Part shown: in pieces, positions 2,522 to 26,528 of the stretch
How positions within the stretch are numbered: the first letter of the stretch is position 1
How the letters are laid out: each line of letters begins with the position of its first letter
NCBI GenBank assembly: GCA_003169975.1
Contig: PNAA01000032.1
Coordinates: 1-64,000 of the forward strand
From: Spartobacteria bacterium
GTDB taxonomy: Bacteria; Verrucomicrobiota; Verrucomicrobiia; Chthoniobacterales; UBA10450
Direction of reading: 5' to 3'
DNA length: 64,000 nucleotides
Made by a program: the position numbers and the translations under genes
The notes under the pieces: generated by a model
Told to the model about the DNA's origin: nothing
What the model saw: only the letters and a program-made list of their open reading frames with translations
Databases searched by the model: none

Positions 2522-2538
2522 CGGGTTAATAGAAGCAC

Positions 2539-4194: not shown

Positions 4195-4301
4195 GTCATA
4201 AGCTTATTTGCGACTTTCCCTAAAGATTGACGCTTCGCGCGGATGTGTGGCCCCACAGCGGACTTCCTGTTTGCCTTGTTCACCGCACAGCCGCACGTTG
4301 G

Positions 4302-5405
4302 CTAAGTTGTGCAATCAAGCAACGCCCCACAAACGGCCGAAATCTGCGTCGGAGCTAATTCCGGGAACATCGGCAGCGACAAGCAACGCCGGCAAAGCAT
4401 TTCAGTTACGGGAAAGTCGCCAACATGATGGCCGAGATGCGCATATGCCTCCTGGAGGTGCACGGGGCGCGGGTAATGTAGGCCGGTTTCGATTCCACAA
4501 TTCAGCAGGTTCCGCCGGACCCAATCCCGCCGGTTACATTCGATCACATAACAGTGCCAGACGCATTCACTTTCAGGAAAGGTCCTTGGCAATTCATACG
4601 CCGATCCGGACAAATATTCAGCGTAACTCGCCGCGTGCCGTCTCCGCCGATCATTCCAGGCGTCAAGGCGCCTCAATTTGATGCTCAGCACCGCTCCCTG
4701 AAGACTATCGAGTCGATAGTTATACCCAATCTCATTATGTAAATACCTTTCGGTCTGAGCGTGGTCACGCAGCGAAGCAGCGCGAGCCGCTATCTTGTCA
4801 TCGTTGGTCATGAGGGCACCGCCTTCACCGTATCCGCCCAAATTCTTTCCAGGATAAAAACTGAAGCAGGCAATTTTGCCAAACTGTCCTACGCGCTTTC
4901 CGCAATAGCGCGCGCCGTGCGCTTGGGCGGCGTCCTCCACCACCGGAATACCTGCATTGTCTGCGATTCTGCAAATAGCATCCATGTCGGCCGGCATACC
5001 GTACAGATGCACTGGGATAATCGCCTTAGTGCGCGGGGTGATGGCGGCCTCTAGCTTCGCAGGATTCATGGTGCGTCGCGCTCGCTCAATATCAACCAAG
5101 ACAGGCCGCGCCCCTACATAGCTGATTGCCCAAACAGTGGCAATAAACGTCATTGCAACTGTAACAACTTCATCACCTGGCCCGACATCTAGACACCGGA
5201 GAGCCAAGTGCAGCGCACTGGAGCCCGTGTTAACACTGACGCAATGCCTGACTCCGCAATATGCCGCGAACTCTTCCTCAAATGCCGCGGAAGCCGGGCC
5301 CTGAGCATACCTGCCGGATCTGCAAATGGCTTCAAAGGCCGGAAACACTTCCCCGCGCAAGCTTTCGAATTCTCCCGGGAGGTCCAAAAAGGGAACTCTT
5401 ATCAT
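4302..5405 (-). CDS. DegT/DnrJ/EryC1/StrS family sugar aminotransferase
   Basis: A 367-residue PLP enzyme that converts a keto-sugar nucleotide to an amino sugar, usually with glutamate as amino donor. The visible family marks are the N-terminal VPFLDLPGEFESL, the phosphate-binding NTGSSALHLAL, the VVEDAAQAHGARY segment with the PLP-pyridine aspartate, and the lysine in FYPGKNLGGYGEGG that forms the Schiff base. Length is normal for the family. It is in one operon with a Gfo/Idh dehydrogenase and a left-handed beta-helix acyltransferase. That trio is known for 3-amino or 2,3-diamino sugars such as the Wbp/Wlb 2,3-diacetamido-uronate route, so it is probably a WbpE-like enzyme. The exact substrate is inference. 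Confidence 0.88.
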   Translation of the reverse strand: MIRVPFLDLPGEFESLRGEVFPAFEAICRSGRYAQGPASAAFEEEFAAYCGVRHCVSVNTGSSALHLALRCLDVGPGDEVVTVAMTFIATVWAISYVGARPVLVDIERARRTMNPAKLEAAITPRTKAIIPVHLYGMPADMDAICRIADNAGIPVVEDAAQAHGARYCGKRVGQFGKIACFSFYPGKNLGGYGEGGALMTNDDKIAARAASLRDHAQTERYLHNEIGYNYRLDSLQGAVLSIKLRRLDAWNDRRRRHAASYAEYLSGSAYELPRTFPESECVWHCYVIECNRRDWVRRNLLNCGIETGLHYPRPVHLQEAYAHLGHHVGDFPVTEMLCRRCLSLPMFPELAPTQISAVCGALLDCTT

Positions 5406-5421
5406 GCTTTTGCTCTCAAAA

Positions 5422-6135
5422 TTAACGGTGAGTATGACTCAGCCGAGCGTGATAGACAATATCACCGCCGACCAATTCGCATTCATGATCCAAGATTCCA
5501 AGGAAGGAAGCAAAATAGGCGGATGAATAGAAAAAGTGAATGTGCAAATCCAGGGTATAGCGAAAGTATCGCTGACAAGGAACAATCACAAACAGGTGTT
5601 GTCTCGCCACCCTTTTCAATTCCTCCAAAGCCATCGTCAAATTACGGACATGCTCCGCCGTGTGAAAGCAGGTAACGACATCGAAGCTGTTGTCCGCGAA
5701 GGGAAGCCGCTCAACGCTGCCAGCCACAAACGGGGCGATACCTGATCGCAGTTGCTTAGCGACATCGCAGCCGGTAACCACGTAACCCAATCGGGCGAAT
5801 CTCTCGAGACAGAACCCTCGACCGCAGCCTACGTCCAACAAAGTATGAATGTCATCGGCTTCCCCGAGCCGGTCAGTGACCCAGAGAAGGCTCTCTTCGG
5901 AGCAATCGGTGGGCCTTGTATTCGCACGACAGCGAATCTGACCGTAAAACGAAGCTAGCTCCTGGTCGTTCATGGACTGGACGACCTCCTTGAAATTGAT
6001 TACCGCCGCAATGTCTGGTGAACCCGCAAACCAATATTGGTAGAACGGATACATGAAGTAATAATTGTCGCGCACGAGAGGCGGCAGACAGCAATCCATT
6101 GCCTGCCTGACGAGGTTCGTAAGACTTCTTTTCAT
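5422..6135 (-). CDS. Class I SAM-dependent methyltransferase
   Basis: A 237-residue protein with motif I LLDVGCGRGFCLERFARLG near residue 95, motif II at FDVVTCFHTAEHV and a later LKRVARQHLFVIVPCQRY strand. These features define the Rossmann methyltransferase fold of the Methyltransf_11 type. The first 60 residues are family-specific and include an aromatic stretch (NYYFMYPFYQYWF). It is 16 bases upstream of the aminotransferase gene and reads in the same direction. It probably methylates a sugar of the cell-surface glycan, but the target (O- or N-methylation) cannot be told from the sequence. Confidence 0.82.
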   Translation of the reverse strand: MKRSLTNLVRQAMDCCLPPLVRDNYYFMYPFYQYWFAGSPDIAAVINFKEVVQSMNDQELASFYGQIRCRANTRPTDCSEESLLWVTDRLGEADDIHTLLDVGCGRGFCLERFARLGYVVTGCDVAKQLRSGIAPFVAGSVERLPFADNSFDVVTCFHTAEHVRNLTMALEELKRVARQHLFVIVPCQRYFRYTLDLHIHFFYSSAYFASFLGILDHECELVGGDIVYHARLSHTHR

Positions 6136-6259
6136 CGCGGCTTTTTCAGCCCAAATGGCACATGCCCGAAGTCTCGACTCCTAGACGAAATGTCAGGGGA
6201 AGATTGAATCCGTATGCTCGGCCAGATATGCCGTGGTAGAGGGCGGCATCCAATGCGGG

Positions 6260-7015
6260 TCATGTTTTTGGACACTGGGGTGCCGGAAAGGTCCTGCGGC
6301 TGGGGTAACGTTCCGACGTAACCGCTAGTTTCAGACAATCCCGTAAGGACGCCACCAAATTGGGAAATGTCGCTCCCAGCGCCTTGCCCCCGGATCGCGC
6401 TGCAAATTCTATCGGGACAAATGCGATTTGGTATCCGTTGCGGCGAGCGACAATGATCCGCTCTGCTTCGACGAACGGACTACGCGACCTGAGCGGCAAG
6501 ACAAATAGTTCTTTGCGACCGAGCTTAATGCTGCCGGCATCGCGGGTCGCCACGCCGAAGAGAATGAGGGGAAGGAGATTAAAAGCATGTGAGACAATTT
6601 GCCGGCGGAGATTGTAAACGGAGCGACGATTTGGGCGTTCGCCCACCACCAAATCGACGCCTCGCGGCAGCACGCTAAGCATGGTCAGGAGATTTCGTGC
6701 TGGCCACTGTCCGTCAGATCCGGTCGCATAGATATACGTCCCCCGTGCTTCGTGGTACAGATCCGCGAACGACTGGTAAATGCCTTTGTTTTCGGTGTGA
6801 CGAACTAATCGGACCCTGCTGTCGCTTCGGCTAATTCTCTCTATGATGAAGGGCGTTCGATCGCGACTACAGTCGTCCAGACAGACTATCTCACACTCCG
6901 TTACACTTGGTGGAAGTCCTCGCAAGACTGCTAAATGCTCCTCAAGCACGGCCTCGATATTGGCTTCTTCGTTGTAGGCAGGCATTACGATAGAGAGAAA
7001 TATGTAGTCACTCAT
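6260..7015 (-). CDS. GT2-family glycosyltransferase
   Basis: A 251-residue GT-A glycosyltransferase. It begins LSIVMPAYNEEANIEAVLEE, has the nucleotide-binding CLDDCSRDRT segment, then ATGSDGQWPARNL where the SDGQ is the metal-binding DXD-equivalent of the dolichyl-phosphate-mannose-synthase-like branch. No C-terminal membrane segments are visible, so it is the soluble type. Its start codon overlaps the stop of the upstream acetyltransferase gene in an ATGA arrangement, indicating translational coupling. It probably transfers one sugar of the repeating unit; donor unknown. Confidence 0.87.
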   Translation of the reverse strand: MSDYIFLSIVMPAYNEEANIEAVLEEHLAVLRGLPPSVTECEIVCLDDCSRDRTPFIIERISRSDSRVRLVRHTENKGIYQSFADLYHEARGTYIYATGSDGQWPARNLLTMLSVLPRGVDLVVGERPNRRSVYNLRRQIVSHAFNLLPLILFGVATRDAGSIKLGRKELFVLPLRSRSPFVEAERIIVARRNGYQIAFVPIEFAARSGGKALGATFPNLVASLRDCLKLAVTSERYPSRRTFPAPQCPKT

Positions 7016-7527
7016 GGCGATTTGCCGCGCCCTCCGCTCAACACGCGCGCGGGATTGCCGGCAACGACTGCACCAGTCCGGACATTTTTTGTCACCACTG
7101 CTCCTGCTCCCACGATTGCACCTCTGCCAATCGTAAGTCCGCCGAGAATCGTCGCGTTTGTGCCGATGCTTGCCCCCTGCCGCACGAGTGTCGGTTCAAC
7201 CTTCCAATCTGCTTTCGTCTGCAATCTTCCGCTTGCTGCAGTTGCCCGCGGATATTTGTCGTTAATAAATTTCACTCCATGACCCACAAAGACCTCGTCT
7301 TCGATCACCACGCCCTCGCAAATGAAGCTGTGGCTGGAGATTTTGCAATACCGACCTATTCGGGCTCCCTTCTGAATTTCCACAAAGCTGCCAATTTTCG
7401 TTCCGGCGCCTATCTCGCAACCATAAAGGTTCACGAAGCTGTAAATGGCCACTTCCGGTCCCAGCTTCACATCCTCCGCGACGACACAGAAGTCACCTCT
7501 GATGGCTGATATTTTCCGCAACTTCAT
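7012..7527 (-). CDS. Left-handed beta-helix sugar N-acyltransferase (WbpD/WlbB-like)
   Basis: A 171-residue protein when started at the internal ATG at 7527. The upstream ATG at 7587 would put the start 32 bases inside the preceding gene and adds residues without family similarity. The body is a run of hexapeptide repeats (VVAEDV, KLGPEV, IGAGTK, IGSFVE, and later IGTNATILGGLTIGRGAIVG) ending in VVAGNPARVL, typical of trimeric acetyl-CoA dependent acetyltransferases. The size and the long loop around VKFINDKYPRA fit the WbpD/WlbB or FdtC group that acetylates a 3-amino group on a UDP- or dTDP-sugar. It sits between the Gfo/Idh dehydrogenase and the GT2 gene. Confidence 0.85.
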   Translation of the reverse strand: MKLRKISAIRGDFCVVAEDVKLGPEVAIYSFVNLYGCEIGAGTKIGSFVEIQKGARIGRYCKISSHSFICEGVVIEDEVFVGHGVKFINDKYPRATAASGRLQTKADWKVEPTLVRQGASIGTNATILGGLTIGRGAIVGAGAVVTKNVRTGAVVAGNPARVLSGGRGKSP

Positions 7528-7555
7528 ACTGGATTTTGGAGAGGCAGATTGCATA

Positions 7556-8566
7556 TCAGAGCGACACGCGAGAGCCATCGTTAGCAATCGACTTACTCGC
7601 CGCCTCTAACATCTTCACGACGGCGAGTCCAGCGGCCCCGCTAGACCGAGGCACCTTTGCGCAGCGGATGCATTCGACGAAGTGCTCACACTCCACCGAA
7701 AGAGCCTCGCGCAATTCTAGCTTTGGCGACCACATGTCTCCCATTCGATAGTCGACTAATGCCTTATACATGCCTTCCGGAGAAGTGACTTGAATACCGC
7801 GGTCGTAAATCCGTACCTTTTCACTCGGCTCCATATCGTCATAGACTAGCATACGACGGCTGCCGCCGATCAGATTCTGGCGGATTTTTACGGGAGAAAG
7901 CCAATTCACGTGAAAATGCGCGATGAAGTTATTGTCAAAGTTTACCGTCATGTATGCCACATCCACAATCCCGCGTCCGGTGTGATCAGCTCCCACCGCC
8001 GAAACGAATCTCGGGGCTTGAGGGAATAGAAAAGTAAGGATCGCGAGATCGTGTGGGGCTAGGTCCCAGAGTACGTCAATATCATACTGAAAGAGGCCGA
8101 GGTTCACTCGTACAGAGTCGTAATAGTAGAGGTCGCCAAGCTCGCCTGCCTGCACGATTTCCTTGATTCTTCGGACGGCACCCGTGTAGATAAAAGTGTG
8201 GTCAACCATCAGCACAAGTTCGCGTTTCGCGGCGATCGCGATAAGTTCCTCGCTTTCCTCCACGGTGCGCGTCATCGGCTTCTCGACAAGGACGTGTTTA
8301 TCGCTTCTGAGCGCTCGTTTAGCCAGCGAGAAATGGGTTGAGACTGACGTCGCGATTACGACCGCACTCACTTCCGGATCGAGAAGAATTTTTTCTACGT
8401 CATCAGTAATCTCGAGAGTTGGGTATCGTTTGCCGGCGGCAGTGCGCCTGTCCGACCGCAAGTCCGCGCACCATTTGACCTCAACACCGTCAGTCTCGGT
8501 CAAATTCCGCAGGAGATTCGGTCCCCAATATCCGTACCCAATTAATCCAATTTTCATGGTGCTCAT
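7556..8566 (-). CDS. Gfo/Idh/MocA-type sugar-nucleotide dehydrogenase (WbpB/WlbA-like)
   Basis: A 336-residue NAD(P)-dependent oxidoreductase. The N-terminal Rossmann motif is KIGLIGYGYWGPNLLRN. The signature lysine is in KHVLVEKPMT, and the catalytic-domain histidine region reads WDLAPHDLAIL. This subfamily oxidises the C3 hydroxyl of a UDP-N-acetyl-hexuronate or a related sugar, giving the keto group that a DegT enzyme then aminates. It is the first gene of a seven-gene minus-strand operon. An alternative start is the ATG three codons in (8557), which places the glycine motif closer to the N-terminus as is usual. No UDP-sugar 6-dehydrogenase (WbpA) is present in the window, so the substrate would have to come from elsewhere. 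Confidence 0.86.
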   Translation of the reverse strand: MSTMKIGLIGYGYWGPNLLRNLTETDGVEVKWCADLRSDRRTAAGKRYPTLEITDDVEKILLDPEVSAVVIATSVSTHFSLAKRALRSDKHVLVEKPMTRTVEESEELIAIAAKRELVLMVDHTFIYTGAVRRIKEIVQAGELGDLYYYDSVRVNLGLFQYDIDVLWDLAPHDLAILTFLFPQAPRFVSAVGADHTGRGIVDVAYMTVNFDNNFIAHFHVNWLSPVKIRQNLIGGSRRMLVYDDMEPSEKVRIYDRGIQVTSPEGMYKALVDYRMGDMWSPKLELREALSVECEHFVECIRCAKVPRSSGAAGLAVVKMLEAASKSIANDGSRVSL

Positions 8567-8871: not shown

Positions 8872-11115
8872 ATGACCGAACCGATGAACAAGAACAATCT
8901 CCGAATTTCGCTACACATCGCGATCTATTTCGGCGGGACAATCGCCTGCTGTGGTTTCGCGTATTGGTTCTTGGATCTCCGCCATTCATGCCTCAAGCTG
9001 CCACTCACCTATCTGGGCGGGGACGAATTTCCCATCGGCATGTGGGTGAAAGAACTGCAGGAAAGAGGTTGGATCTTACATAATCCGCGGCTCGGGATGC
9101 CGTTCCCTCCAGAGATGTTCACCTATCCTGTCCCGGACACGTTCCATCTCTTGGTACTCAGGGTCCTGGGATTGGTCGCCCAACCTTTCGGCCTCGTGAT
9201 GAATCTCTTTTACCTGTTTACTTTCCCGCTGACATTTGTCTGCACTCTCTATGTCTTGCGCGATTTCGGCATCGGTTATCCCGCAGCGTTATTTTCCGCA
9301 CTCCTGTATACATTTTTGCCATTTCATTTTATGCGAGAGGAAACACATCTGCTCCTCAGTGCGTACTACATGGTCCCGCTGATCATCATGATGATGTACA
9401 GGCTTCTCTCCGAGCGGCTGCCTCTCCTGCGCAGCCAGTCGACGCCGTTTCCAACAGTCGCTATCCGCACTGGCCAAACTATTGCGGTGATCGGCATCTG
9501 TGTTTTGGTCGGTTCCACCGGAAGTGGTTATTACCCATTTTTTGCCTGCTTTTTGCTTTCGATTGCCGGAATAGGAGCGGCGATTCTGCAGCGTCGGTGG
9601 CTTCCCCTCATTAACGGCATGCTAATGGCGGCGATCATTACGTTCACAGTCGCTCTCAATCTTTCGCCGAACATCATCCACGCGTTCGAGGAAGGTCGTG
9701 GCAAAGTGTTTATTCGTTCGCCAGCTGAAGCCGAAATCTATGGGCTAAAAATCGCCCAATTACTCTTGCCGTTGTCAGGGCACCGCTTGAAGATGTTCGC
9801 GGAGATTAAGAATCGCTACAATCAGGCGCCGTTGGTCAACGAGAACGATACGGCCACATTGGGAGAAATTGGGGGAGCTGGCTTTCTCTTTCTTCTCGGC
9901 TGGCTTGGCTTTCGATTAATGCGTCCAAATGTAAATTGGCTGACGCGTGCTGATCGGGAGTTACTTGATTACACGGCGCTGCTGACAACCGCAACCACCT
10001 TGCTGGCTACGGTCGGGGGTTTCGGCTCTCTCCTGGCAATTTTCGCCTTCCCCGAAATTCGTGCCTATAATAGGATAAGCATTTACCTGGCATTTTTCTG
10101 CCTCTTAGTCGTCGCTTTGCTCATCGACCGAGTAATTGGGTCACGGATTAAAAGCAGAAATGCTTACCTTTTCTACTGCGTGGGAATGGCGATATTACTT
10201 GTTTTCGGTCTCCTTGACGAAACAGCGCGATCTTTCGCACATGATTACAGATCCCTGCGGCTCAGATTCGCAAGCGATAAACAATTTGTCCAAAGTATCG
10301 AGCGGACTTTGACGCCTGGTTCGATGATTTTCCAGTTACCATACGGGTCCTTTCCCGAAAGCTCGCCAACCTTCCGTATGACAGCTTATGATCCCTTGCT
10401 TGGTTACCTGCATTCCAGGACGCTTCGATGGAGCTTCGGCGGGATGATCGGTGGGAAGGCCGACGTGTGGCAGAAACATGTTGCGGAAGAACCGCCGACG
10501 GAGATGCTTGAAGCGCTGGCACTGGTAGGTTTTGCGGGAATTTATCTCGACCGCTACGGATATATAGATCAGGCGGAGGGGACGGAGCGCCAACTGCAAG
10601 GTTTGCTCACTCAGGCACCACTTACGAGCGAAAACGGAAGGCTGGCGTTCTACGATTTGCGGCCGTTTGCCGCGCGTTTACGAACCCGCCTTTCTGGGCA
10701 ACAATGGCGCTTGGCCGAAGCTCAGGTGAGGAATCCACCGTCGATCTCTTTTGGCGACGGCTTTTACAATGAAGAATCAAATGGTCTACGAAAATGGCGG
10801 TGGACATCCTCGAGCGAAGTTGACCTGCATCTTGCGAATTCCTCAGGCCATGACGAACATGTTCTGTTGCAGCTGACGCTGGCTACGGGTCATCCTCAAT
10901 CAAGTAGCGTCCGCCTCACCGGTCCCGGACTCGACTGCCAGGTGAAAGTCGATTTTAACGGCCTCGCAATCTCAAAGCCGATCGTCCTGCCGAAAGGCGA
11001 CGCCGTGCTTCATCTAAGCACTGATGCGCCAAAGGTGATCGCGCCGGCCGACCCGAGGACGATGTTTTTGAGAATTGAGGATGTAGGATTGTTGTCTCAG
11101 CCTGCTAATGACTGA
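8872..11115 (+). CDS. Polytopic membrane protein, probable GT-C-like glycosyltransferase
   Basis: A 747-residue protein. It has an N-terminal membrane segment, then an outside loop with LGGDEFPIGMWVKEL, the kind of acidic loop found after helix 1 in GT-C enzymes. About ten further hydrophobic segments follow (for example LVMNLFYLFTFPLTFVCTLY, TIAVIGICVLVGSTGSGYY and YLAFFCLLVVALLIDRVIG). The last 270 residues form a soluble part with a beta-rich end. The architecture resembles YfhO-type or oligosaccharide-transferring membrane enzymes that use polyprenyl-linked sugars. It is a single-gene unit divergent from the glycan operon. Assignment as a sugar transferase is inference from topology, the acidic loop and neighbours; a plain hypothetical membrane protein is the fallback. 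Confidence 0.7.
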   Translation: MTEPMNKNNLRISLHIAIYFGGTIACCGFAYWFLDLRHSCLKLPLTYLGGDEFPIGMWVKELQERGWILHNPRLGMPFPPEMFTYPVPDTFHLLVLRVLGLVAQPFGLVMNLFYLFTFPLTFVCTLYVLRDFGIGYPAALFSALLYTFLPFHFMREETHLLLSAYYMVPLIIMMMYRLLSERLPLLRSQSTPFPTVAIRTGQTIAVIGICVLVGSTGSGYYPFFACFLLSIAGIGAAILQRRWLPLINGMLMAAIITFTVALNLSPNIIHAFEEGRGKVFIRSPAEAEIYGLKIAQLLLPLSGHRLKMFAEIKNRYNQAPLVNENDTATLGEIGGAGFLFLLGWLGFRLMRPNVNWLTRADRELLDYTALLTTATTLLATVGGFGSLLAIFAFPEIRAYNRISIYLAFFCLLVVALLIDRVIGSRIKSRNAYLFYCVGMAILLVFGLLDETARSFAHDYRSLRLRFASDKQFVQSIERTLTPGSMIFQLPYGSFPESSPTFRMTAYDPLLGYLHSRTLRWSFGGMIGGKADVWQKHVAEEPPTEMLEALALVGFAGIYLDRYGYIDQAEGTERQLQGLLTQAPLTSENGRLAFYDLRPFAARLRTRLSGQQWRLAEAQVRNPPSISFGDGFYNEESNGLRKWRWTSSSEVDLHLANSSGHDEHVLLQLTLATGHPQSSSVRLTGPGLDCQVKVDFNGLAISKPIVLPKGDAVLHLSTDAPKVIAPADPRTMFLRIEDVGLLSQPAND

Positions 11116-15708: not shown

Positions 15709-15975
15709 TTGGAACCGGACAACACATCGCCGCGCAGAAGATCGACCGACGGTCGCTAAGGTCGTGCGGTGAGTCGCCACAGCCCGGCGCACGATTCAAC
15801 ACAGCCATCGGGCGCGACAACTTCAAGAATCATGTTGACGAGCATCGGCGCGAGCCGCCACTCTCGGCCATTAAACCAGATCTGGATCAGGCGCGGATGC
15901 TCGACCATGGGGAGTTTCTTCCGTCTTTCAGACCTCAACCAGCAGATAAACCACCAGGTGAAAGAAAAACTCCAT

Positions 15976-17535
15976 ATGTATCATTCGATTCGACTAACAA
16001 TTCCAATTCCATCCGTCAGAACTTCGACCAACCGGCCTCTTCGGCAGCGCGGTCTTTTTTCCACCGCGCTTGCGCTCGCCCTTGCCTGGTTTGCGCTTTC
16101 GCCCACGGCCGGAGCGGTCACGCCACCGCCCGATGGTGGCTATCCCAACCAAAACACCGCGGAGGGTGATAACGCGCTCTTTAGCCTCACCACCGGGGCA
16201 AATAACACGGCCAGCGGATTTGATGCGCTCTTGCACAACACCACCGGCTTCAACAACACAGCTACCGGTGTGAGTGCGCTCTTGAGCAACACCACTGGCG
16301 CCAACAACACAGCCAACGGTCTTCAAACGCTCTTTCACAACACCACTGGCTTCACCAACACGGCTAACGGTGTCTCAGCGCTCCAAAACAACACCACCGG
16401 CAGCAATAACACAGCCACCGGTGTGAGCGCGCTCTTGAACAACACCAATGGCGCCAACAACACGGCGACCGGCCTTCAATCGCTCTTGGACAACACGGCT
16501 GGCGGCGAGAACACGGCTAACGGTGTTAATGCGCTCCAAAACAACTCCACTGGCAACGACAACACGGCTAGCGGTGTCTCAGCCCTTTTTTTAAACTCAT
16601 TTGGCTCCGCTAACACGGCCACAGGCGTTAGTGCACTCTATAGGAACACGCTCGGTAATAATAACACGGCCACCGGTCGTAGTGCACTCAATTTCAACAC
16701 CATAGGCGAAGGCAACACGGCCATCGGTGCCACAGCGCTCGACCAGAACGATACTGGCGTCAACAACACGGCCAGCGGCTTTCAAGCGCTCTATCTTAAC
16801 ATAACTGGCGACAATAACATTGCCTTAGGTTTTAACGCGGGTTACAATACGACGGGGAGTAATAACATCGAGATTGGTAACAGTGGAGTCGCGGGCGAGG
16901 GCCAAACGATCCGTATCGGCTCGGCAGGCACTCAGAGCGCCACCTTTATTGCTGGTATCAGTGGGAAAACGATTGCCGGTGGGGTGACAGTCATCATCGA
17001 TGCCAACGGTCATCTGGGCACGGTCGTCTCCTCCGAACGTTTCAAGGACGCGATCCAGCCGATGGACAAAACTAGCGAAGCGATTCTCGCGCTGCACCCC
17101 GTGACCTTCCGCTATAAGCACGAGCTGGACCCCGCTGGCATCCCGCAGTTTGGCCTCGTGGCCGAGCAAGTGGAAAAGGTGGACCCAGACTTAGTGGCGC
17201 GCGATGGCCAGGGGAAAGCCTATACCGTACGGTATGAGGCCGTGAACGCGATGTTGCTCAACGAGTTCCTCAAAGAACACCGCAAGGTCGAGATACAGTA
17301 TCGCAAAATGCAGGAACAGGAAGCGGCGATCACGCGACTAAAGTCAGCGGGCGCAAAGCAGGAAGTAGCCATCGCTCAGCAGAAAAACGATTTCCAGTCA
17401 GTCCTCGCGGAGCAGCAGAAGGAAATCAAAGCCCTCACCGCAGCCCTCAAAGAGCAGGCGTTTCAAATCCAGAAGGTGAGCGCTCGACTGGCCGCGGACA
17501 AAGCTGCGCCGCGCTTGGTCGGCAACAATCGGTAA
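15976..17535 (+). CDS. Secreted 17-residue-repeat protein with S74 chaperone tail
   Basis: A 519-residue protein. The start at 15976 is chosen because it gives a signal peptide (LALALAWFALSPTAGA) and because CCAGGTGAAA precedes it exactly as it precedes the start of the paralogue at 17860. Residues about 73-293 are 13 copies of a 17-residue unit of the form TGxNNTAxGxxALxxNT, a YadA-head-like beta-roll. Next come a short linker and a Peptidase_S74 intramolecular chaperone domain (SSERFKDAIQPMD, LHPVTFRYK, PQFGLVAEQVEKV, YEAVNAMLLNEF). The last 80 residues are a coiled coil. Such domains drive trimer assembly in phage tailspikes and in bacterial surface fibres and cleave themselves off in some cases. 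There are no phage genes nearby, so a surface fibre is more likely. Confidence 0.85.
   Translation: MYHSIRLTIPIPSVRTSTNRPLRQRGLFSTALALALAWFALSPTAGAVTPPPDGGYPNQNTAEGDNALFSLTTGANNTASGFDALLHNTTGFNNTATGVSALLSNTTGANNTANGLQTLFHNTTGFTNTANGVSALQNNTTGSNNTATGVSALLNNTNGANNTATGLQSLLDNTAGGENTANGVNALQNNSTGNDNTASGVSALFLNSFGSANTATGVSALYRNTLGNNNTATGRSALNFNTIGEGNTAIGATALDQNDTGVNNTASGFQALYLNITGDNNIALGFNAGYNTTGSNNIEIGNSGVAGEGQTIRIGSAGTQSATFIAGISGKTIAGGVTVIIDANGHLGTVVSSERFKDAIQPMDKTSEAILALHPVTFRYKHELDPAGIPQFGLVAEQVEKVDPDLVARDGQGKAYTVRYEAVNAMLLNEFLKEHRKVEIQYRKMQEQEAAITRLKSAGAKQEVAIAQQKNDFQSVLAEQQKEIKALTAALKEQAFQIQKVSARLAADKAAPRLVGNNR
16192..16854 (+). repeat. 13 tandem 51-bp units coding for 17-residue repeats
   Basis: Each unit codes for a T-G-x-x-N-T-A-x-G motif, with the AACACGGC core the most constant DNA stretch. 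Unit length is uniformly 51 bases with no frame break. Neighbouring units differ at many third positions, so the array is old rather than freshly expanded. Confidence 0.85.
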
Positions 17536-17566
17536 GACGGCGTAGAGAGATCGGCGGGCGAGCGGG

Positions 17567-17589
17567 CAGAGCCCGGAAACCCGGCTCTG
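17567..17589 (+). terminator. Hairpin after the second S74 gene
   Basis: A CAGAGCCCGG arm pairs with CCGGCTCTG around AAAC, 32 bases after the stop codon. It is conserved with the hairpin at 15686, and TTGAAT follows. This may terminate the gene or stabilise its mRNA end. Confidence 0.45.
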
Positions 17590-17859
17590 TTGAATCAGGG
17601 GCAACGCATCGCCATGCAGGAGATTGACAGACGGTCGGCTGAAATCGTTCGGTTGGGCTGCCACAGCCGGCGCACGATTCAAGATGGCCATCGGGCGCGA
17701 CCGTTTGAAGAATTATGTTGACGAGCATCGGCGCGAGCCGCCACTCTCAGCTAAATAAGAAAAGATCTGGATCTGGCGCGGTCGCTTTGACCTGGGAGCT
17801 TCCTCCCACTTTCAGACCTGTAGTCGCAGGTTAACCTCCAGGTGAAAAGGAAGACTGCA

Positions 17860-19341
17860 ATGCAAAATCCAGTTCAACGAACAAAAGCAATTGATCCGAT
17901 CAGAAACTCGCTCAACCGCTCGCCTTGGCGGCGCGGTTTTCTCCTCATCCCGCTCGCGTTCACCGCGGCATGCTTGGCGCTTTCGCCGCAGGCGCGAGCC
18001 GTTTGTCAAGAAGGCTGCGGCACCAGCAACCACAACACGTTCCTGGGTGATGACGCTCTCATTTCCAACACAACCGGCAGCGATAACACGGCAATCGGTG
18101 ATGGAGCGCTCGCCAGCAATACCATCGGCTCTGGTAACACGGCTAGCGGTGATGAAGCGCTCGTTTTCAACACCACCGGCAGCAATAACACAGCTAACGG
18201 CGTTGCTGCGCTTCTTCTTAACAAGAGCGGTAGCGACAACACGGCAATCGGTTATGTTGCGCTGAACCAGAACTACACGGGCAAGGACAACACGGCCGCC
18301 GGGGCTTCGGCGCTCGTTTCCAACAGCATCGGCAACTTCAACACGGCGACTGGCTACCAGGCGCTCTATTACAACACCATAGGCAACGCCAACACGGCCA
18401 ACGGGGTTAGCGCGCTTCAAACCAATAGCAGTGGCAACAATAACACGGCGAATGGTGTGAGTGCGCTCTTGAACAACAGCACCGGCAGCTTCAACACGGC
18501 CAACGGTTGGCAATCGCTCTATGGCAACACCACTGGCTACGACAATACAGCCGACGGTGTCTTTGCGCTTTCTAGCAACACCACCGGGGGCAATAATACC
18601 GCGACAGGGTTCCATGCGTTCGCCGGCAATACAACCGGCAGCAATAACATTGCCTTGGGAGTTTTGGCTGGTTCAGCTCTCACGACGGGAAGCAACAATA
18701 TCGAGATCGGCAATATAGGTGTGACTGGCGAATCGGGTCGGATTCGCATCGGCAAGGTCGGAACTCAGAGCGCCACCTTTGTCGCCGGCATTAGTGGAGT
18801 AACGGTTGCAGGAGGGGTAACCGTAGTGGTCGATAGCAACGGCCAACTTGGTACGGTCACTTCCTCGGCGCGTTTCAAGGACAAGGTTCAGCCGATGGAC
18901 AAGGCGAGCGAAGCGATCCTTTCGCTCCACCCGGTCACCTTCCGCTACAAGCACGAGCTTGACCCTGAGGACATCCCACAGTTTGGATTGGTGGCCGAGG
19001 AAGTAGAAAAGGTAAGTCCCGATTTAGTGGCCCGCGACGGTCAAGGCAAGCCTTACACTGTGCGGTACGAAGCGGTGAACGCGATGCTGCTGAATGAGTT
19101 TCTTAAAGAACACCGCAAGGTCGCGGAACAGAACCGAAAGGTAGAGGAACTGGAAGCGACCGTCGGGCAGTTAAAATCAACGGTGGTCCAGCAAAAGGAC
19201 TTGCAGGCGATCGTGGCCCAGCAAGAGTACGAAATCAAGACTCTGACAGCCAGCTTGAAACAGCAGGCCTCACAAATCCAAAAGGTGAGCGACCGGCTTG
19301 AAGTAAGCAAACCTGCCGCGCGAGTAGTCGCCAACAATTAG
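17860..19341 (+). CDS. Secreted 17-residue-repeat protein with S74 chaperone tail, second copy
   Basis: A 493-residue paralogue of the preceding gene. It has a signal peptide (LLIPLAFTAACLALSPQARA), then VCQEGCGT with two cysteines that the neighbour lacks, then 12 units of the 17-residue repeat (18073-18684). The S74 domain (SSARFKDKVQPMD, LHPVTFRYK, PQFGLVAEEVEKV, YEAVNAMLLNEF) and a coiled coil ending SDRLEVSK follow. The S74 domains of the two copies are nearly identical in protein while the repeat regions differ, which suggests diversifying heads on a constant tail. The start at 17860 follows the same CCAGGTGAAA ribosome-binding context as the first copy. It is probably a trimeric surface or extracellular fibre. 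Confidence 0.85.
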   Translation: MQNPVQRTKAIDPIRNSLNRSPWRRGFLLIPLAFTAACLALSPQARAVCQEGCGTSNHNTFLGDDALISNTTGSDNTAIGDGALASNTIGSGNTASGDEALVFNTTGSNNTANGVAALLLNKSGSDNTAIGYVALNQNYTGKDNTAAGASALVSNSIGNFNTATGYQALYYNTIGNANTANGVSALQTNSSGNNNTANGVSALLNNSTGSFNTANGWQSLYGNTTGYDNTADGVFALSSNTTGGNNTATGFHAFAGNTTGSNNIALGVLAGSALTTGSNNIEIGNIGVTGESGRIRIGKVGTQSATFVAGISGVTVAGGVTVVVDSNGQLGTVTSSARFKDKVQPMDKASEAILSLHPVTFRYKHELDPEDIPQFGLVAEEVEKVSPDLVARDGQGKPYTVRYEAVNAMLLNEFLKEHRKVAEQNRKVEELEATVGQLKSTVVQQKDLQAIVAQQEYEIKTLTASLKQQASQIQKVSDRLEVSKPAARVVANN

Positions 19342-21311: not shown

Positions 21312-22625
21312 TCATTGGACTGCCGCTTCAATTGCAACTCGAAGGTGTGGAGGCAAGCAGCGATCTAACGATTGACGGAGAAATTCCGCCGGGACGCGCA
21401 CATTGCAGACGTCCTTCGCAGCGGCGATCAGATTCCCCTGGGCACGGTCCAGAATATCCCTTTCAATAACGTTCTTGAATAGCCCCGCTACTGTATCCCC
21501 GCGCAGATGGGCATTGACGAATGCCTTCGCGGCGTTTCCCACCGTATCCCGAAGCGTCCAGTCAGTCACCAGTCGCTCGATCGCCTGCGCCAAGTCATTC
21601 ACCTCGCTTGCGCCGATGCCAATTTTGATTGCGCAATCGTCTGGAATCTCGCTAAAAGATGCGTCATTGGTAATGATGCATGCTTTGCCCATCGACATCG
21701 CTTTCGTGAGTGTCGCGGAAGATTCCCCCATACTAGGAAATCGCAGGTTCACTACTATATCGGTTAACGCCAGATACCGAGAGAAGTCCACATCGCTGAC
21801 AAAGTAAGTACGAATCGTGCATTCGGTCAATCCCGCCGTCTCTATCAGGTGGGTAAGATCATCGCCTTGTCCGACGACCAGGAATCGAAACGCTAGCTTT
21901 CCCTTGAGCCTCGACAATGCCTGCGCCACCTGTTCGATTCGCTTGGTGGGTCCGATAAATCCCAAGCAAGCGATCACCAATTCCCCCTTACCGATACCGT
22001 GTTTTTCACGAAACTCATACACCGCACCTCCGCTAGGAACGGGCTGCGCTGGTGTAGAAGCCAGCAGCGGCACGACATGCACCGAGCGCTCATAGCCTAG
22101 CGCGACCAGCCGATCATGAGCCCAGCGATTATGCACAACAATCGAGGAAGCACCCGAAAAAATTGAAGCTACGAGGGGGTAATTCTCGGGATGCTTGTAT
22201 CGCAGTATATCGCCTTCTGCCGCGTCAGCAATAATCAAATCGATATCCGACGCTCGCTCCATTCCATAGTTTAACCACAAGTGTTTGATTAAGCCCGACC
22301 TCCCCAAGCCAGCAAAAAGGTAGTAGAGAACGACGTCATGGAGCACCACGATCCCGGGGAATTGCCGAAGCATATGGAAAATATCGAGATGAAAATGCGG
22401 GTTGTTGCCCAGATGGTAAATCACCGCATCATAAATTCTGAGATGGCTGACTCGGCCAATCTGCTCAAAGTCGCCACAACTGTTCGAAGGATCTTGAGCT
22501 TCTCTATTTCGAAAGTCGTAACAATCGACGGCCATTAATTTGCGGAGGCCCTCAACCAGGGCGACCGAATAAGCCGCGATTCCCGTCTGTTTCGGCGGGA
22601 ACGGAGAGAAGTAGGCGATTTTCAT
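21312..22625 (-). CDS. GT4-family glycosyltransferase
   Basis: A 437-residue GT-B protein, last gene of the second minus-strand glycan operon. It begins KIAYFSPFPPKQTGIAAYS, the usual N-terminal glycine-rich loop of GT4. The C-terminal nucleotide-binding half starts LVIACLGFIGPTKRIEQV and has RFPSMGESSATLTKAMSMGK where the E-x7-E catalytic motif is expected; SMGESSATLTKAM keeps the first glutamate but has lysine near the second position. The final 50 residues lie beyond the GT fold. The start codon overlaps the stop of the upstream glycosyltransferase gene by four bases. Confidence 0.85.
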   Translation of the reverse strand: MKIAYFSPFPPKQTGIAAYSVALVEGLRKLMAVDCYDFRNREAQDPSNSCGDFEQIGRVSHLRIYDAVIYHLGNNPHFHLDIFHMLRQFPGIVVLHDVVLYYLFAGLGRSGLIKHLWLNYGMERASDIDLIIADAAEGDILRYKHPENYPLVASIFSGASSIVVHNRWAHDRLVALGYERSVHVVPLLASTPAQPVPSGGAVYEFREKHGIGKGELVIACLGFIGPTKRIEQVAQALSRLKGKLAFRFLVVGQGDDLTHLIETAGLTECTIRTYFVSDVDFSRYLALTDIVVNLRFPSMGESSATLTKAMSMGKACIITNDASFSEIPDDCAIKIGIGASEVNDLAQAIERLVTDWTLRDTVGNAAKAFVNAHLRGDTVAGLFKNVIERDILDRAQGNLIAAAKDVCNVRVPAEFLRQSLDRCLPPHLRVAIEAAVQ

Positions 22626-23668
22626 GAACTCAGCAAGTTGTCGACGACATGGTCCCAGGAGATACCTAGAGTTTGCAGTGTGTCCCTGCCGTTACGACCA
22701 AGTTGCTGTGCTTTCGCCCGATCTTTCGCGAGCGAGTTGATCGCACTTGCGAGGTGCGTGGCATCTGGCTTTGTGATGAATCCATTATGTCCATCGACCA
22801 CAAACTCAAGCGGGCCGCCCGAATCGGTGTGTGTTATGACCGGCTTGCTGGCGTAGAATGCCTCGAGAGTTGCGTAGCCATAATCCTCCTCAACGACACC
22901 ATTGTACACAGCGAGGCAATTGGCATACAGGTCAAGCTTTTCCGCTTCGGTTATCCGCCCAAGGATCCGAACACGCGATGCGATTGGAGAAGCTCTAATT
23001 CGAGCCACGAGGTCTTCACCGTACTTAGAGTCATACTGGCCGCACAACACCAGTTGAAGGTCCAGCGGCAGGCTTTGAATGGCATCAAAAATGAGGTGTT
23101 GTCGTTTCATCTGGTCGAAACGGCCGGGATATAAGATGTAGTCATCAAATCTGCCGGTCCTAAACTTATCGTAGTTCGCCGGCGGATGGTAAAGTGGGGT
23201 GGATTCGATTGAGTTAAACCGAAGCAAACGCGCAGCCACAATCTTGGACTCGGCGAATACTGCTGAACTCTGCGGGATAAAGTAATCGTCCCAGCGCTTT
23301 ATCTCTGCGGCGACATCTTGGCCCTGTACGGTCTGCCATAAATCACTATATTGGGTGCCATAGAGGTCATAGGCTTGGCGATGCTGATGGATGATCCAGC
23401 ATACCTTGTGGGGATGTGGCGCGTAGTAAGCGGGGAATTTCAGCCCGATAACGCGGTCGATCTTGTTGCCATTGACTTCCTCCACGTCGACAAGCCGGGC
23501 CATTAGCATGCAATCGAGAATACGCTCAGGCGGGTACCATTTGAATGGAATCAGAACGATTTCGGTTTGGCATCCGCGTTTGGTGAGTTCTTCCTTTAAC
23601 GAGGCCGCCTGCATCTCCGCACCGCCCGTTATGAAGGGCACTTGAACGGAGAGGATACAGACCTTCAC
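22622..23668 (-). CDS. GT4-family glycosyltransferase
   Basis: A 348-residue GT-B enzyme beginning KVCILSVQVPFITGGAEMQA, the GG-x-E acceptor-site loop of GT4. In the C-terminal half, DDYILYPGRFDQMKRQHLI starts the nucleotide-sugar domain, and VVEEDYGYATLEAFYASKPV carries the E-x7-E motif, followed by THTDSGGPLEFV. Four-base ATGA overlaps with both neighbours indicate translational coupling within a four-gene operon. Donor and acceptor are not predictable from sequence. Confidence 0.88.
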   Translation of the reverse strand: MKVCILSVQVPFITGGAEMQAASLKEELTKRGCQTEIVLIPFKWYPPERILDCMLMARLVDVEEVNGNKIDRVIGLKFPAYYAPHPHKVCWIIHQHRQAYDLYGTQYSDLWQTVQGQDVAAEIKRWDDYFIPQSSAVFAESKIVAARLLRFNSIESTPLYHPPANYDKFRTGRFDDYILYPGRFDQMKRQHLIFDAIQSLPLDLQLVLCGQYDSKYGEDLVARIRASPIASRVRILGRITEAEKLDLYANCLAVYNGVVEEDYGYATLEAFYASKPVITHTDSGGPLEFVVDGHNGFITKPDATHLASAINSLAKDRAKAQQLGRNGRDTLQTLGISWDHVVDNLLSS

Positions 23669-24765
23669 GAACTGTGGAGAAGGTTGTGCACCGCCCCGAC
23701 AAAGGCATTCTCGATCGGCTCGTCCGTAAATCGCTCCCGGACGTTTCGCTCACCGTCTCTGACGATCTGTTCGCGCAGCTTTCCGTCGTCTATTACTTGC
23801 TCAGCGAGGGCGGCATAGAACGCATAATCTTCCTCGGCCCTAGGCGGATCAGAAAGCAGTTGATCGGGTCCGGCGGTTTCTCCCATCGCCGTAGCGGCGG
23901 ATCCGATCACCGGCAAGCCGATGGCCTGTGCTTCCACGATAGGAACACAAAATCCCTCATGTTCGCTAAAACAGACATAGATGTGTGATCGACGGAACAG
24001 ATCGATTAGTTCGGCATCAGAGCAATGTGATCGCAGTTCAATACAACCTTCCAGGCCGAGTCGGCTTCTCTCTGTTCGAATGACATTGTAATAGCCGTCC
24101 ACTTCCGGATCGCTCGCGCCAACGAGCGTCACATGAACTTTTCGCGCTCGAGAACGGAAGGCCTGCGCAACCCGCAGCAATTGAACGTGCCCTTTATTTG
24201 GCGCAAGCCGGCCCACCAGCAGCCAGTTCACCGTTTCGGCGGAGTAATCAGCGCAATGCTCGAGGCCGAGCAAAGCCTGGCTCCGGTTGAAGGGCGGCGC
24301 CACAAACAAGCGAGACGGATGGGCGCCGCTTTGCTCCAGTTCATCGCGGTTGTAAATTGAATCGGCTAACCAAATGTGCTTCCGGTCGATGGCGAGAAAG
24401 CGCTGCGTCAGTTTCCGCCCCTCAACACAAACCGAGGAATGGCGCGCGCTATAGGGGGCGAAGAAATGGGCCGGCGTGATGTTATGATATCGGAAGATAA
24501 CGGGGCAACTCGTCTTGTGAACAAGGCTTTCGCCCGCAGCCCAATACTGGCTGTGATGATAGATCAAGAGGGAGAGCGAAGCGCAATCGAGCTCCTCTGG
24601 CCGGATCGATTTCAACTCCCCGGACTGGCGCCGGTGCGATTCGCAAACGATCACCGGCTCGCCGCCAAGTCTTTCGAGCAAGCCATACATCCTGGCGATA
24701 TCATGGCCGATGGCGTCGCCCCAAGTCACCGTCTGGTGACAAAGGGCGACTTTGAAGGCACTCAT
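23665..24765 (-). CDS. GT4-family glycosyltransferase
   Basis: A 366-residue GT-B protein. The N-terminus (FKVALCHQTVTWGDAIGHDI) has the loop of the acceptor domain, the middle has WLLVGRLAPNKGHVQLLRV, and the catalytic motif reads SEHEGFCVPIVEAQAIGLPV with both glutamates present. It is related to the mannosyltransferase group of O-antigen operons, though no specificity can be assigned. It is 20 bases downstream of the coiled-coil methyltransferase gene and overlaps the next gene by four bases. Confidence 0.87.
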   Translation of the reverse strand: MSAFKVALCHQTVTWGDAIGHDIARMYGLLERLGGEPVIVCESHRRQSGELKSIRPEELDCASLSLLIYHHSQYWAAGESLVHKTSCPVIFRYHNITPAHFFAPYSARHSSVCVEGRKLTQRFLAIDRKHIWLADSIYNRDELEQSGAHPSRLFVAPPFNRSQALLGLEHCADYSAETVNWLLVGRLAPNKGHVQLLRVAQAFRSRARKVHVTLVGASDPEVDGYYNVIRTERSRLGLEGCIELRSHCSDAELIDLFRRSHIYVCFSEHEGFCVPIVEAQAIGLPVIGSAATAMGETAGPDQLLSDPPRAEEDYAFYAALAEQVIDDGKLREQIVRDGERNVRERFTDEPIENAFVGAVHNLLHSS

Positions 24766-24785: not shown

Positions 24786-26528
24786 TTACTTCCTCCCGAT
24801 GACGGCGTAGTCCTGCGCTCCGAAAAACATTTGGTTGATGAATCGCTCCATTGGAGGTGATCCCTCGGAGACTGGCAATGCGTTGTGATCTGGGTGAAGC
24901 GGAAGAATCTCCAGAGAAGTAAAGCCGGCCGTGGCCATCGCGAACTTAGTGAACTCCTTTGGCAACGGGCGGAGGTGAGTTGGGTCCGAATAGAATCGAT
25001 TGCTTCCGACTTGGACGTTGTCTGGATTCGGTGTCTCAAAAATACAGACACCGCCTGGACGTAACACACGGAGAGATTCGGCGAAAAGATTCATGAGCGA
25101 TGGGAAGGGAAGATGTTCAATGAGATGGAATGCGGTAATGGCTCCCTGACTGTTGGAACGAAGCGAACCGAGGTGCTGGAGCACGTCAGCTTGTGTTACC
25201 AGTAGCTTGCGCGCCGCGCATTCCTCTACCATAAACCCATTCAGGTCTACTCCGTGTCCGACTAAGCCCTCCTCCCGCAGCAGCTCGAGCCATTCGCCGC
25301 GCCCGCAACCGAGATCAAGAAGCGGTTTGCGGCGCTTGGCAAGACCGGCCTCCTTAACAAGTGGTAAATAAACGCGCACGCGCCGTTTAATGTCCGCCCG
25401 CGCTCCCCGGAACTTGTTCTCGAACGCGACGTAAAAGGCGTCAAACTCGTGTTTGCTGTCGCCGTTGAGATCAGCCGCTGATTCATGCTTGCCTCTGCGC
25501 CGCCGCGCTTGTCCAGCGTCATTGCTCGACAGAGCGACATCGTGCGCGCGCAATTGCAACTCTCTTTTTAGATAGCTGGAATCCGCAACTTGTCTTTCGT
25601 CGAGATTGGTTAGCAGATTCTGGAGAAGCGTCGCCGCGGATTTCGCCTGCTCTAGTTTTTCATTCTGGCCCTCCACGCGCCCTTCCACTTTTTCGCGCGC
25701 TTTCGCTTCGCCCGTCAACGCCGCGCTAACCGCTTCGAGAGTGCTCCCAAACGAGTCGAGCCTTTCGTGCTGTCCCTGCACGCGCCCTTCCACTTCTTCG
25801 CGCGCTTTCGCTTCGCCCGTCAGCGCGACACGGGCAGCTTCAAGCACGTTCTCAAAAAAGTCGAGCCTCTCATGCTGAACTCGCACCCGCTCTTCCACTT
25901 CTTCGCGCGCTTTCGCTTCGCCCGTCAGCGCGACACGGGCAGCTTCAAGCACGTTCTCAAAAAAGTCGAGCCTCTCATGCTGAACTCGCACCCGCTCTTC
26001 CACTTCTTCGCGCGCTCTCGCTTCGCCCGTCAGCGCGGTGCGGACGCTTACCTCCAGCTGCTGAAGTATCGACCCCGCGGATCTCATCCACGTGCTATCT
26101 GCAGTCCGATGGGCCGACACGATATGGAGCCAGCGATTTTGGGACTCCAGAGCGGAACTTATCTCCCGCAGGCGGTTGCTCAGCTCGGCCGTGTTCTTGA
26201 CCACCGACGTCACGACGTCGAGGAGGTGACGATCATAGGCGCCTTGTTTGCGAAAAAGGCGCCGCAAAGGCTTTGGAATCCATCTCCGGACTTCCACCTT
26301 CGCGCGCGCTTCGCCCAGAATCTGATCGAGACGCTCTTTCTTCACGTTCACGGGTCGAATCGAGACGGGAGCAGGCGGCGGGGGCAGGACAGTTACACCG
26401 GGCAGCACAGTGCCGGCGCCATGATTCCGCTGGTACGGGAGACCCAGTGCTAGCGCTTTGCCAGTTTCAACGCGCGTGCGTTCCATTAAGGCGCGGACGT
26501 CGATTTTTGGATTGTCAGATTCAATCAT
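24786..26528 (-). CDS. Coiled-coil protein with C-terminal methyltransferase, WbdD-like chain terminator candidate
   Basis: A 580-residue protein and first gene of the operon. The N-terminal 160 residues are proline-rich and then helical. Residues about 162-300 are four tandem 35-residue repeats (ALTGEAKAREEVEERVRVQH plus a 15-residue remainder); 35 is exactly five heptads and the repeats are charged, so they form a continuous coiled coil. Residues about 400-580 are a class I methyltransferase (PLLDLGCGRGEWLELLREEG, AFHLIEHLPFPSL, VLRPGGVCIFETPNPDN), of the type found in O-antigen terminating methyltransferases. In E. coli WbdD a coiled coil fixes polysaccharide length. Here the domain order is reversed and no kinase domain is seen. 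The ruler role is inference. Confidence 0.75.
   Translation of the reverse strand: MIESDNPKIDVRALMERTRVETGKALALGLPYQRNHGAGTVLPGVTVLPPPPAPVSIRPVNVKKERLDQILGEARAKVEVRRWIPKPLRRLFRKQGAYDRHLLDVVTSVVKNTAELSNRLREISSALESQNRWLHIVSAHRTADSTWMRSAGSILQQLEVSVRTALTGEARAREEVEERVRVQHERLDFFENVLEAARVALTGEAKAREEVEERVRVQHERLDFFENVLEAARVALTGEAKAREEVEGRVQGQHERLDSFGSTLEAVSAALTGEAKAREKVEGRVEGQNEKLEQAKSAATLLQNLLTNLDERQVADSSYLKRELQLRAHDVALSSNDAGQARRRRGKHESAADLNGDSKHEFDAFYVAFENKFRGARADIKRRVRVYLPLVKEAGLAKRRKPLLDLGCGRGEWLELLREEGLVGHGVDLNGFMVEECAARKLLVTQADVLQHLGSLRSNSQGAITAFHLIEHLPFPSLMNLFAESLRVLRPGGVCIFETPNPDNVQVGSNRFYSDPTHLRPLPKEFTKFAMATAGFTSLEILPLHPDHNALPVSEGSPPMERFINQMFFGAQDYAVIGRK
25626..26045 (-). repeat. Four tandem 105-bp units inside the coiled-coil gene
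   Basis: The two central units are almost identical at DNA level; the flanking units are diverged. Each codes for 35 residues, five heptads, so gain or loss of a unit changes coiled-coil length without changing its phase. Confidence 0.8.

What the first reader, a model, noticed from the sequence alone, without database searches (positions are those of the whole stretch)
25626..26045. Exact five-heptad repeat units in a methyltransferase, a candidate glycan length ruler
The four 35-residue units keep coiled-coil phase, and the two central units are almost identical in DNA, so copy number could change easily. In E. coli O9a the coiled-coil length of WbdD sets polysaccharide length. Here a methyltransferase follows the coiled coil at the head of an operon with three glycosyltransferases. 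If the same logic applies, chain length could be tuned in 35-residue steps, by a protein with reversed domain order.
Basis: inference. Interest (0 to 1): 0.62.

Follow-up and report, generated by a model that had tools for sequence, protein, structure and literature searches.

The report
Coiled-coil methyltransferase, candidate glycan ruler
A soil Verrucomicrobia bacterium carries a methyltransferase at the end of a long, tandemly duplicated coiled coil, whose relatives across many phyla sit beside polysaccharide exporters and differ between close relatives mostly by whole coil units, as a sugar-chain 'ruler' that evolves in steps would, though its effect on chain length is unproven.

Summary
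The repeat is real. ORF 24786-26528(-), 580 aa, has 35-residue units starting at aa 165, 200, 235 and 270. Units 1 and 2 differ by 1 of 105 nt; the fourth is half diverged. The near-identical pair is the first two, not the central two. Heptad periodicity and an AlphaFold model support one long coil (aa 86-343) ending in a class I methyltransferase.

That methyltransferase is specifically related to the MT domain encoded between wzt and the mannosyltransferases in E. coli O8 clusters (50% identity over 155 aa), the WbdD of O8. The domain order is inverted: head and basic helix, coil, MT. The inverted architecture is widespread; among 41 loci with full flanks, 30 carry Wzt, often the adjacent gene. 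Coil length varies in whole units between near-identical relatives: 112 (8x14), 22, 14, 7 and 21 residues, and 14 between two Pseudomonas monteilii strains.

Against the ruler here: no exporter lies in this locus, and in its own family carriers hold Wzm no more often than non-carriers (3/9 vs 22/74); two relatives lack the MT. No chain-length data exist.

Verdict: an inverted variant of the WbdD terminator/ruler type. Ruler logic is plausible for the family and unproven for this gene.

The parts
24786..26528 (-). CDS, 580 aa: conserved head, basic amphipathic stretch, long coiled coil, C-terminal class I SAM methyltransferase
26448..26528 (-). head motif aa 1-27 (MIESDNPKIDVRALMERTRVE...), shared with relatives that are linked to Wzm/Wzt
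   Evidence: profile of 34 ABC-linked heads scores the window head 20.3 bits, E 5e-6; best of 200 shuffles 6.1 bits
26241..26294 (-). basic amphipathic stretch aa 79-96 (EVRRWIPKPLRRLFRKQG, net charge +6), candidate membrane anchor
   Evidence: highest hydrophobic moment of the first 345 aa, but only borderline against shuffles (p 0.046)
25500..26237 (-). long helix / coiled coil aa 98-343, about 37 nm if straight
   Evidence: heptad periodicity p<0.001; AlphaFold helices 86-236 and 246-343
25932..26036 (-). 35-aa unit 1 (aa 165-199)
25827..25931 (-). 35-aa unit 2 (aa 200-234), 1 nt different from unit 1
25722..25826 (-). 35-aa unit 3 (aa 235-269), 23 nt different from unit 2
25617..25721 (-). 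degenerate unit 4 (aa 270-304), 39-42 nt different
24789..25469 (-). methyltransferase domain aa 354-580, related to the MT of the E. coli O8-type cluster
23665..24765 (-). GT4-type glycosyltransferase, 366 aa
22622..23668 (-). GT4-type glycosyltransferase, 348 aa; homologue lies beside the coil-MT gene in G010 contig C8, G011 and G018
21312..22625 (-). GT4-type glycosyltransferase, 437 aa

Best explanation
The protein is an inverted-order counterpart of the WbdD terminators of ABC-transporter-type glycan pathways. Its N-terminal head and basic stretch hold it at the cytoplasmic membrane beside the glycosyltransferases of its operon (inferred). A parallel oligomeric coil (helix predicted; oligomer inferred) carries the methyltransferase some tens of nanometres away. 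The MT methylates the non-reducing end of the growing lipid-linked glycan once the chain is long enough to reach it, and this stops growth (inferred from WbdD). Coil length therefore sets the minimum or modal chain length, and it evolves mainly by tandem gain or loss of coil units (variation shown in relatives; effect on glycan not shown). In this genome the capped glycan would leave through the unlinked Wzm/Wzt_C exporter (speculative).
For: MT domain specifically related to the MT of E. coli O8-type clusters, encoded right after wzt and before the mannosyltransferase genes; PMC3482155 calls O8 WbdD a simple methyltransferase that terminates and regulates chain length. The inverted architecture occurs in about ten phyla; 45 of 80 loci, and 30 of 41 with at least 7.5 kb on each side, hold a Wzt-like gene, often within about 130 nt on the same strand. 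The head motif is shared with ABC-linked members. Heptad periodicity and AlphaFold long helix. Coil repeats in 31 of 81 relatives, 17 with a unit of 7n residues and 5 of 22. Pairs that differ by whole units: 112 = 8x14 with MT 96% and head 99% identical, 14 with MT 100%, 22 and 7; Pseudomonas plasmids 463/477/484 aa with an ABC ATPase gene overlapping upstream. The genome has Wzm and Wzt with a Wzt_C domain on another contig.
Against: No exporter in the window locus. In the same bacterial family Wzm occurs in 3 of 9 carriers and 22 of 74 non-carriers (Fisher p=1); G010, 98% complete with two copies, has none. Window and its two nearest relatives form a clade without ABC linkage. Two relatives have head and coil but no MT (L046, L047), which points to a scaffold role. 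Repeat units carry polar a/d residues and a Gly, and AlphaFold breaks the helix at 237-245. Some relatives have unit lengths that do not fit a coil (10, 13, 16, 27). Neither the glycan nor its length is known.
Confidence: 0.48

Rival explanations
1. Scaffold: head and coil tether glycosyltransferases and methyltransferase in one membrane-bound complex; coil length is selected loosely or is neutral, and the MT decorates the glycan without setting its length.
For: Carriers in this family mostly lack Wzm. Two members lack the MT but keep head and coil, one overlapping a dual GT4 gene. A 348-aa GT4 homologue is a conserved neighbour in four genomes. Coil lengths vary widely, 56 to 365 residues.
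Against: Does not explain why relatives so often sit beside Wzm/Wzt, why the MT is related to a terminating WbdD, or why most of the length changes are multiples of 7 or 22 residues, although any coil would tolerate in-phase changes best.
Confidence: 0.32
2. Protein glycosylation: the operon builds and methylates a glycan for a secreted repeat protein, such as the Asn/Thr-rich Peptidase_S74 proteins encoded at 15769-19341, and the coil only positions the enzymes.
For: Two Asn/Thr-rich secreted-type proteins lie 2 kb from the operon. Related MT genes on roseobacter plasmids lie beside type I secretion and/or DUF4214 genes.
Against: The pattern used for these repeats found none near the coil-MT genes of relatives; no oligosaccharyltransferase was sought or found.
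Confidence: 0.12
3. The repeats are recent, near-neutral slippage in an unimportant stretch, and the gene works as an ordinary sugar methyltransferase.
For: Units 1/2 are almost identical in DNA; the gene is sporadic, 9 of 83 family genomes at E 1e-25.
Against: Arrays of different unit sequence in 31 of 81 relatives, most with coil-compatible length, while head and MT stay conserved.
Confidence: 0.08

Closest known systems
WbdD of E. coli O8 (terminating methyltransferase; gene order wzm-wzt-MT-mannosyltransferases)
   Same: Homologous MT domain (50% identity over 155 aa, E 1e-45), adjacent coil region, basic stretch at the far end from the MT; relatives of the window protein share the wzm-wzt-MT gene order.
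   Different: O8 protein has the MT first and the coil after it; window protein has head, coil, then MT. No exporter beside the window gene.
WbdD of E. coli O9a (the coiled-coil ruler)
   Same: Long coil that separates a terminating enzyme from the membrane end; engineered insertions and truncations change O-antigen length (PMC5082667).
   Different: [quoted passage not shown] no kinase here, and its chains were not among the listed sequence matches to the window protein.
Klebsiella O7 ORF6 and O12 WbbB multidomain terminators (PMC11231755)
   Same: Terminating enzyme at the distal end of a coil, polymerising enzymes at the other end.
   Different: Catalytic terminator is N-terminal there and GT modules are fused C-terminally; here the GTs are separate genes and the MT is C-terminal.
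E. coli O101/O162 MT with C-terminal coiled coil (PMC13168486)
   Same: MT plus coil in an O-antigen cluster, proposed as a ruler by its authors.
   Different: MT is N-terminal; it was not compared here by sequence.
3DLI, Archaeoglobus fulgidus SAM methyltransferase
   Same: Nearest solved structure of the MT domain (Z 28.2, 35% identity).
   Different: Function not described in the tool output; the chain listed covers only an MT-sized stretch.

Membership tests
WbdD-type chain terminators (O8 type) | Methyltransferase domain homologous to O8 WbdD MT | tested here: met
   BLASTP E 1e-45, profile 238 bits against at most 37 for other MTs
WbdD-type chain terminators (O8 type) | Extended coiled coil joined to the MT | tested here: met
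WbdD-type chain terminators (O8 type) | MT N-terminal, coil C-terminal | tested here: not met
   order is inverted here
WbdD-type chain terminators (O8 type) | Gene in a cluster with wzm and wzt | tested here: not met
   none in the window locus; exporters on contigs C2 and C16; met in many relatives
WbdD-type chain terminators (O8 type) | Membrane-associated amphipathic region at the coil end away from the enzyme | tested here: inconclusive
   basic amphipathic stretch aa 79-96, borderline against shuffles
WbdD-type chain terminators (O8 type) | Caps the non-reducing end and sets chain length | not testable with these tools
   no glycan data
O9a WbdD kinase-methyltransferase | Kinase domain beside the MT | tested here: not met
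   only methyltransferase families found
Inverted coil-MT family of ABC-linked glycan clusters (described here) | Head motif, coil and C-terminal MT of one kind | tested here: met
Inverted coil-MT family of ABC-linked glycan clusters (described here) | Unit number varies between close relatives | tested here: met
   (in relatives; not testable in this species)

The most novel reading that the evidence does not exclude
A class of inverted coiled-coil terminators, spread over many phyla, whose length is digital: coil units of 7, 14, 22 or 35 residues are gained and lost as tandem repeats between strains and sister species, so that surface glycan length is tuned in discrete genetic steps while anchor and enzyme stay constant.
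Probability: 0.4. Interest if true: 0.72.

Novelty: new variant of a known kind. Interest (0 to 1): 0.56.

Why it matters
The coil ruler rests on a few enterobacterial proteins and engineered mutants. If the inverted family works alike, nature has already run the length experiment: sister species and strains with near-identical anchors and enzymes but coils that differ by 1 to 8 whole units. The idea then becomes testable by measuring glycans from existing isolates, and it would show how bacteria change surface-sugar length by simple repeat slippage. It would also assign a role to a very common protein annotated only as 'class I SAM-dependent methyltransferase'.

Tried and rejected
A first scan of genome contigs with the single protein found no relatives; the alignment query did. 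The second ABC2-type hit on contig C9 is not a polysaccharide exporter locus. Polysacc_synt_3 flippases occur in every carrier but also in all 14 control genomes, so this says nothing. WbdD of O9a did not appear among listed sequence matches, so the O9a protein is treated as analogue only; absence from the list is no proof. A look for a coil protein next to the Wzm loci of three genomes found none. The idea that the repeat is chance was rejected. Same-genus genomes lack the gene at E 1e-25, so strain comparison in this lineage was impossible; a misassembled copy number in this genome cannot be excluded.

Full report
OBSERVATION. The ORF at 24786-26528(-) encodes 580 aa. TRF finds a 105-bp array at 25674-26037, 3.5 copies, score 525. 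The 35-aa units begin at aa 165, 200, 235 and 270; nucleotide differences are 1 (units 1/2), 23 (2/3) and 39 (3/4) of 105. So the near-identical pair is the first two, not the central two, and the fourth unit is degenerate. The array is not chance: its self-match score is 69 against at most 5 for shuffles.

ANATOMY. Hydrophobic periodicity at 3.5 residues is significant in every unit, in the whole array and in the preceding coil (aa 100-164), with core positions a = LRVLL and d = EVQFA. AlphaFold (42 sequences, mean pLDDT 77.7) gives helices 86-236 and 246-343 and a confident methyltransferase fold from about 352. The MT is class I (Pfam Methyltransf_23/11/25); its nearest solved structure is 3DLI. 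Ahead of the coil lies a conserved head (aa 1-27) and a basic amphipathic stretch (aa 79-96, net +6), whose moment is only borderline against shuffles. Three GT4-type genes follow with a 20-nt gap and two 4-nt overlaps, so one operon is likely. The 348-aa GT has homologues beside coil-MT genes in three other genomes.

RELATIVES. In the same bacterial family nine of 83 genomes carry the gene at E 1e-25. They share head and MT but their coils differ, with other repeat periods: 14 aa in L037, 18/36 in L045, 30 in L047. Two proteins in G006 (L046, L047) have head and coil but no MT. In nearly all of them the MT is C-terminal behind a stretch of about 100 to 630 aa.

LINK TO EXPORTERS. A Wzt-like gene (Walker A plus YSSGM-type motif; a motif definition, not a curated model) lies in 45 of 80 loci and in 30 of 41 that have at least 7.5 kb on both sides; in about half of the 45 it is within 130 nt, directly upstream on the same strand, with a Wzm-sized hydrophobic ORF ahead of it. 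A profile of these Wzm ORFs and the window genome's own Wzm was run over 83 family genomes. Here the link vanishes: 3 of 9 carriers and 22 of 74 non-carriers have Wzm (Fisher p=1). The window genome does have Wzm plus Wzt with a Wzt_C domain on contig C2 and a second Wzm on C16, both away from this locus and without a neighbouring coil protein. In the MT tree the window joins two Verrucomicrobiota sequences (97/92 support), none ABC-linked; a second Chthoniobacterales clade is sister to an ABC-linked Verrucomicrobia gene, L142. Loss of linkage in this lineage is an inference.

LINK TO A CHARACTERISED ENZYME. Plasmid records led to E. coli clusters annotated as O8 family wzm and wzt followed by an MT gene and mannosyltransferase genes. 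The window MT matches this MT at 50% identity over 155 aa, E 1e-45. A profile of the family's MT scores it 238 bits, against at most 37 for eight other methyltransferases from these genomes. PMC3482155 describes O8 WbdD as a simple methyltransferase among the terminating, chain-length-regulating WbdD proteins; that this gene is wbdD rests on gene order and that paper, not on an annotation in the record. In the O8 protein the MT is first and the coil follows, so the window protein has the same enzyme with the coil on the other side.

VARIATION. 31 of 81 pre-MT stretches show tandem repeats above shuffles (thresholds set by hand; related sequences are not independent); lags are 14 in twelve, 22 in five, and 35, 28, 56, 7 and others; four lags (10, 13, 16, 27) do not fit a coil. 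Near-identical pairs isolate the change: Anabaenopsis elenkinii against a Nodularia MAG, 112 residues = 8 units of 14, MT 96% and head 99% identical; Brasilonema bromeliae against Scytonema tolypothrichoides, 14 residues, MT 100%; Microcystis species, 22; two Brasilonema, 7. Other pairs show indels that are not whole units, for instance 31 and 37. On Pseudomonas plasmids the protein is 463, 477 or 484 aa, all steps multiples of 7, including two P. monteilii strains 14 apart. In E. coli O8, 303 genomes match; the listed sample of 60 shows one fixed length except a plasmid copy with a perfect 156-bp (52-aa) coil duplication, which is not in heptad phase, and one partial match. MAG repeats may be collapsed by assembly.

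MECHANISM. Shown: repeat, helix prediction, MT fold and homology, operon-like order, exporter linkage and unit variation in relatives. Inferred: membrane anchoring by the N-terminus, oligomeric coil, capping at the non-reducing end, chain-length control. The ruler mechanism of O9a WbdD is described in PMC5082667 and PMC11231755; [quoted passage not shown] The inverted proteins keep this geometry if the N-terminus binds the membrane. The main rival is a scaffold with no measuring role, favoured by the absence of Wzm in most carriers of this family and by MT-less members.

LITERATURE. Nine searches of the open library found no report of the inverted order or of natural tandem-unit variation. The main review of the field and the original O9a ruler paper could not be read, so priority is not claimed.

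VERDICT. Observation partly confirmed; interpretation partly supported; new variant of a known kind. For this very gene the ruler reading stands near even odds; for the wider ABC-linked family it is better supported.

Noticed in passing
window 15769-17535(+) and 17842-19341(+): Two Asn/Thr-rich proteins with 17-aa repeats (51-bp units), signal-like N-terminus and a shared C-terminal part; a Peptidase_S74 chaperone domain was found by scan in the first only.
   Followed up: partly
window 716-8566(-): Second glycan-type cluster (two MTs, GT4, GT2, DegT aminotransferase, Gfo/Idh oxidoreductase) near the contig edge at base 1.
   Followed up: no
window 8872-11115(+): 747-aa polytopic membrane protein without a Pfam match.
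   Followed up: no
L046:7249-7848(-) and L047:7940-9076(-): Proteins with the same head and a coil but no methyltransferase; the first overlaps a dual GT4 gene by 4 nt.
   Followed up: partly
L186:2831-4264(+): E. coli O8-type MT gene on plasmid pECO-5e72 with a perfect 156-bp tandem duplication in the coil, against one length in the other complete matches of the listed sample.
   Followed up: yes
L179, L180, L181, L187: Pseudomonas plasmid cargo: ABC ATPase, coil-MT, GT, GDP-mannose dehydratase; DUF4214 genes seen nearby in L181; coil lengths differ by 7, 14 and 21 residues.
   Followed up: yes
L182, L183: Roseobacter plasmids: short relatives of the MT beside GT and DUF4214 genes, with type I secretion genes in L182, suggesting a different use of the enzyme.
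   Followed up: no
L041:2094-5573(+): Triple GT4-domain protein of 1159 aa that looks like an internal duplication of the dual GT4 partner of other coil-MT genes.
   Followed up: no
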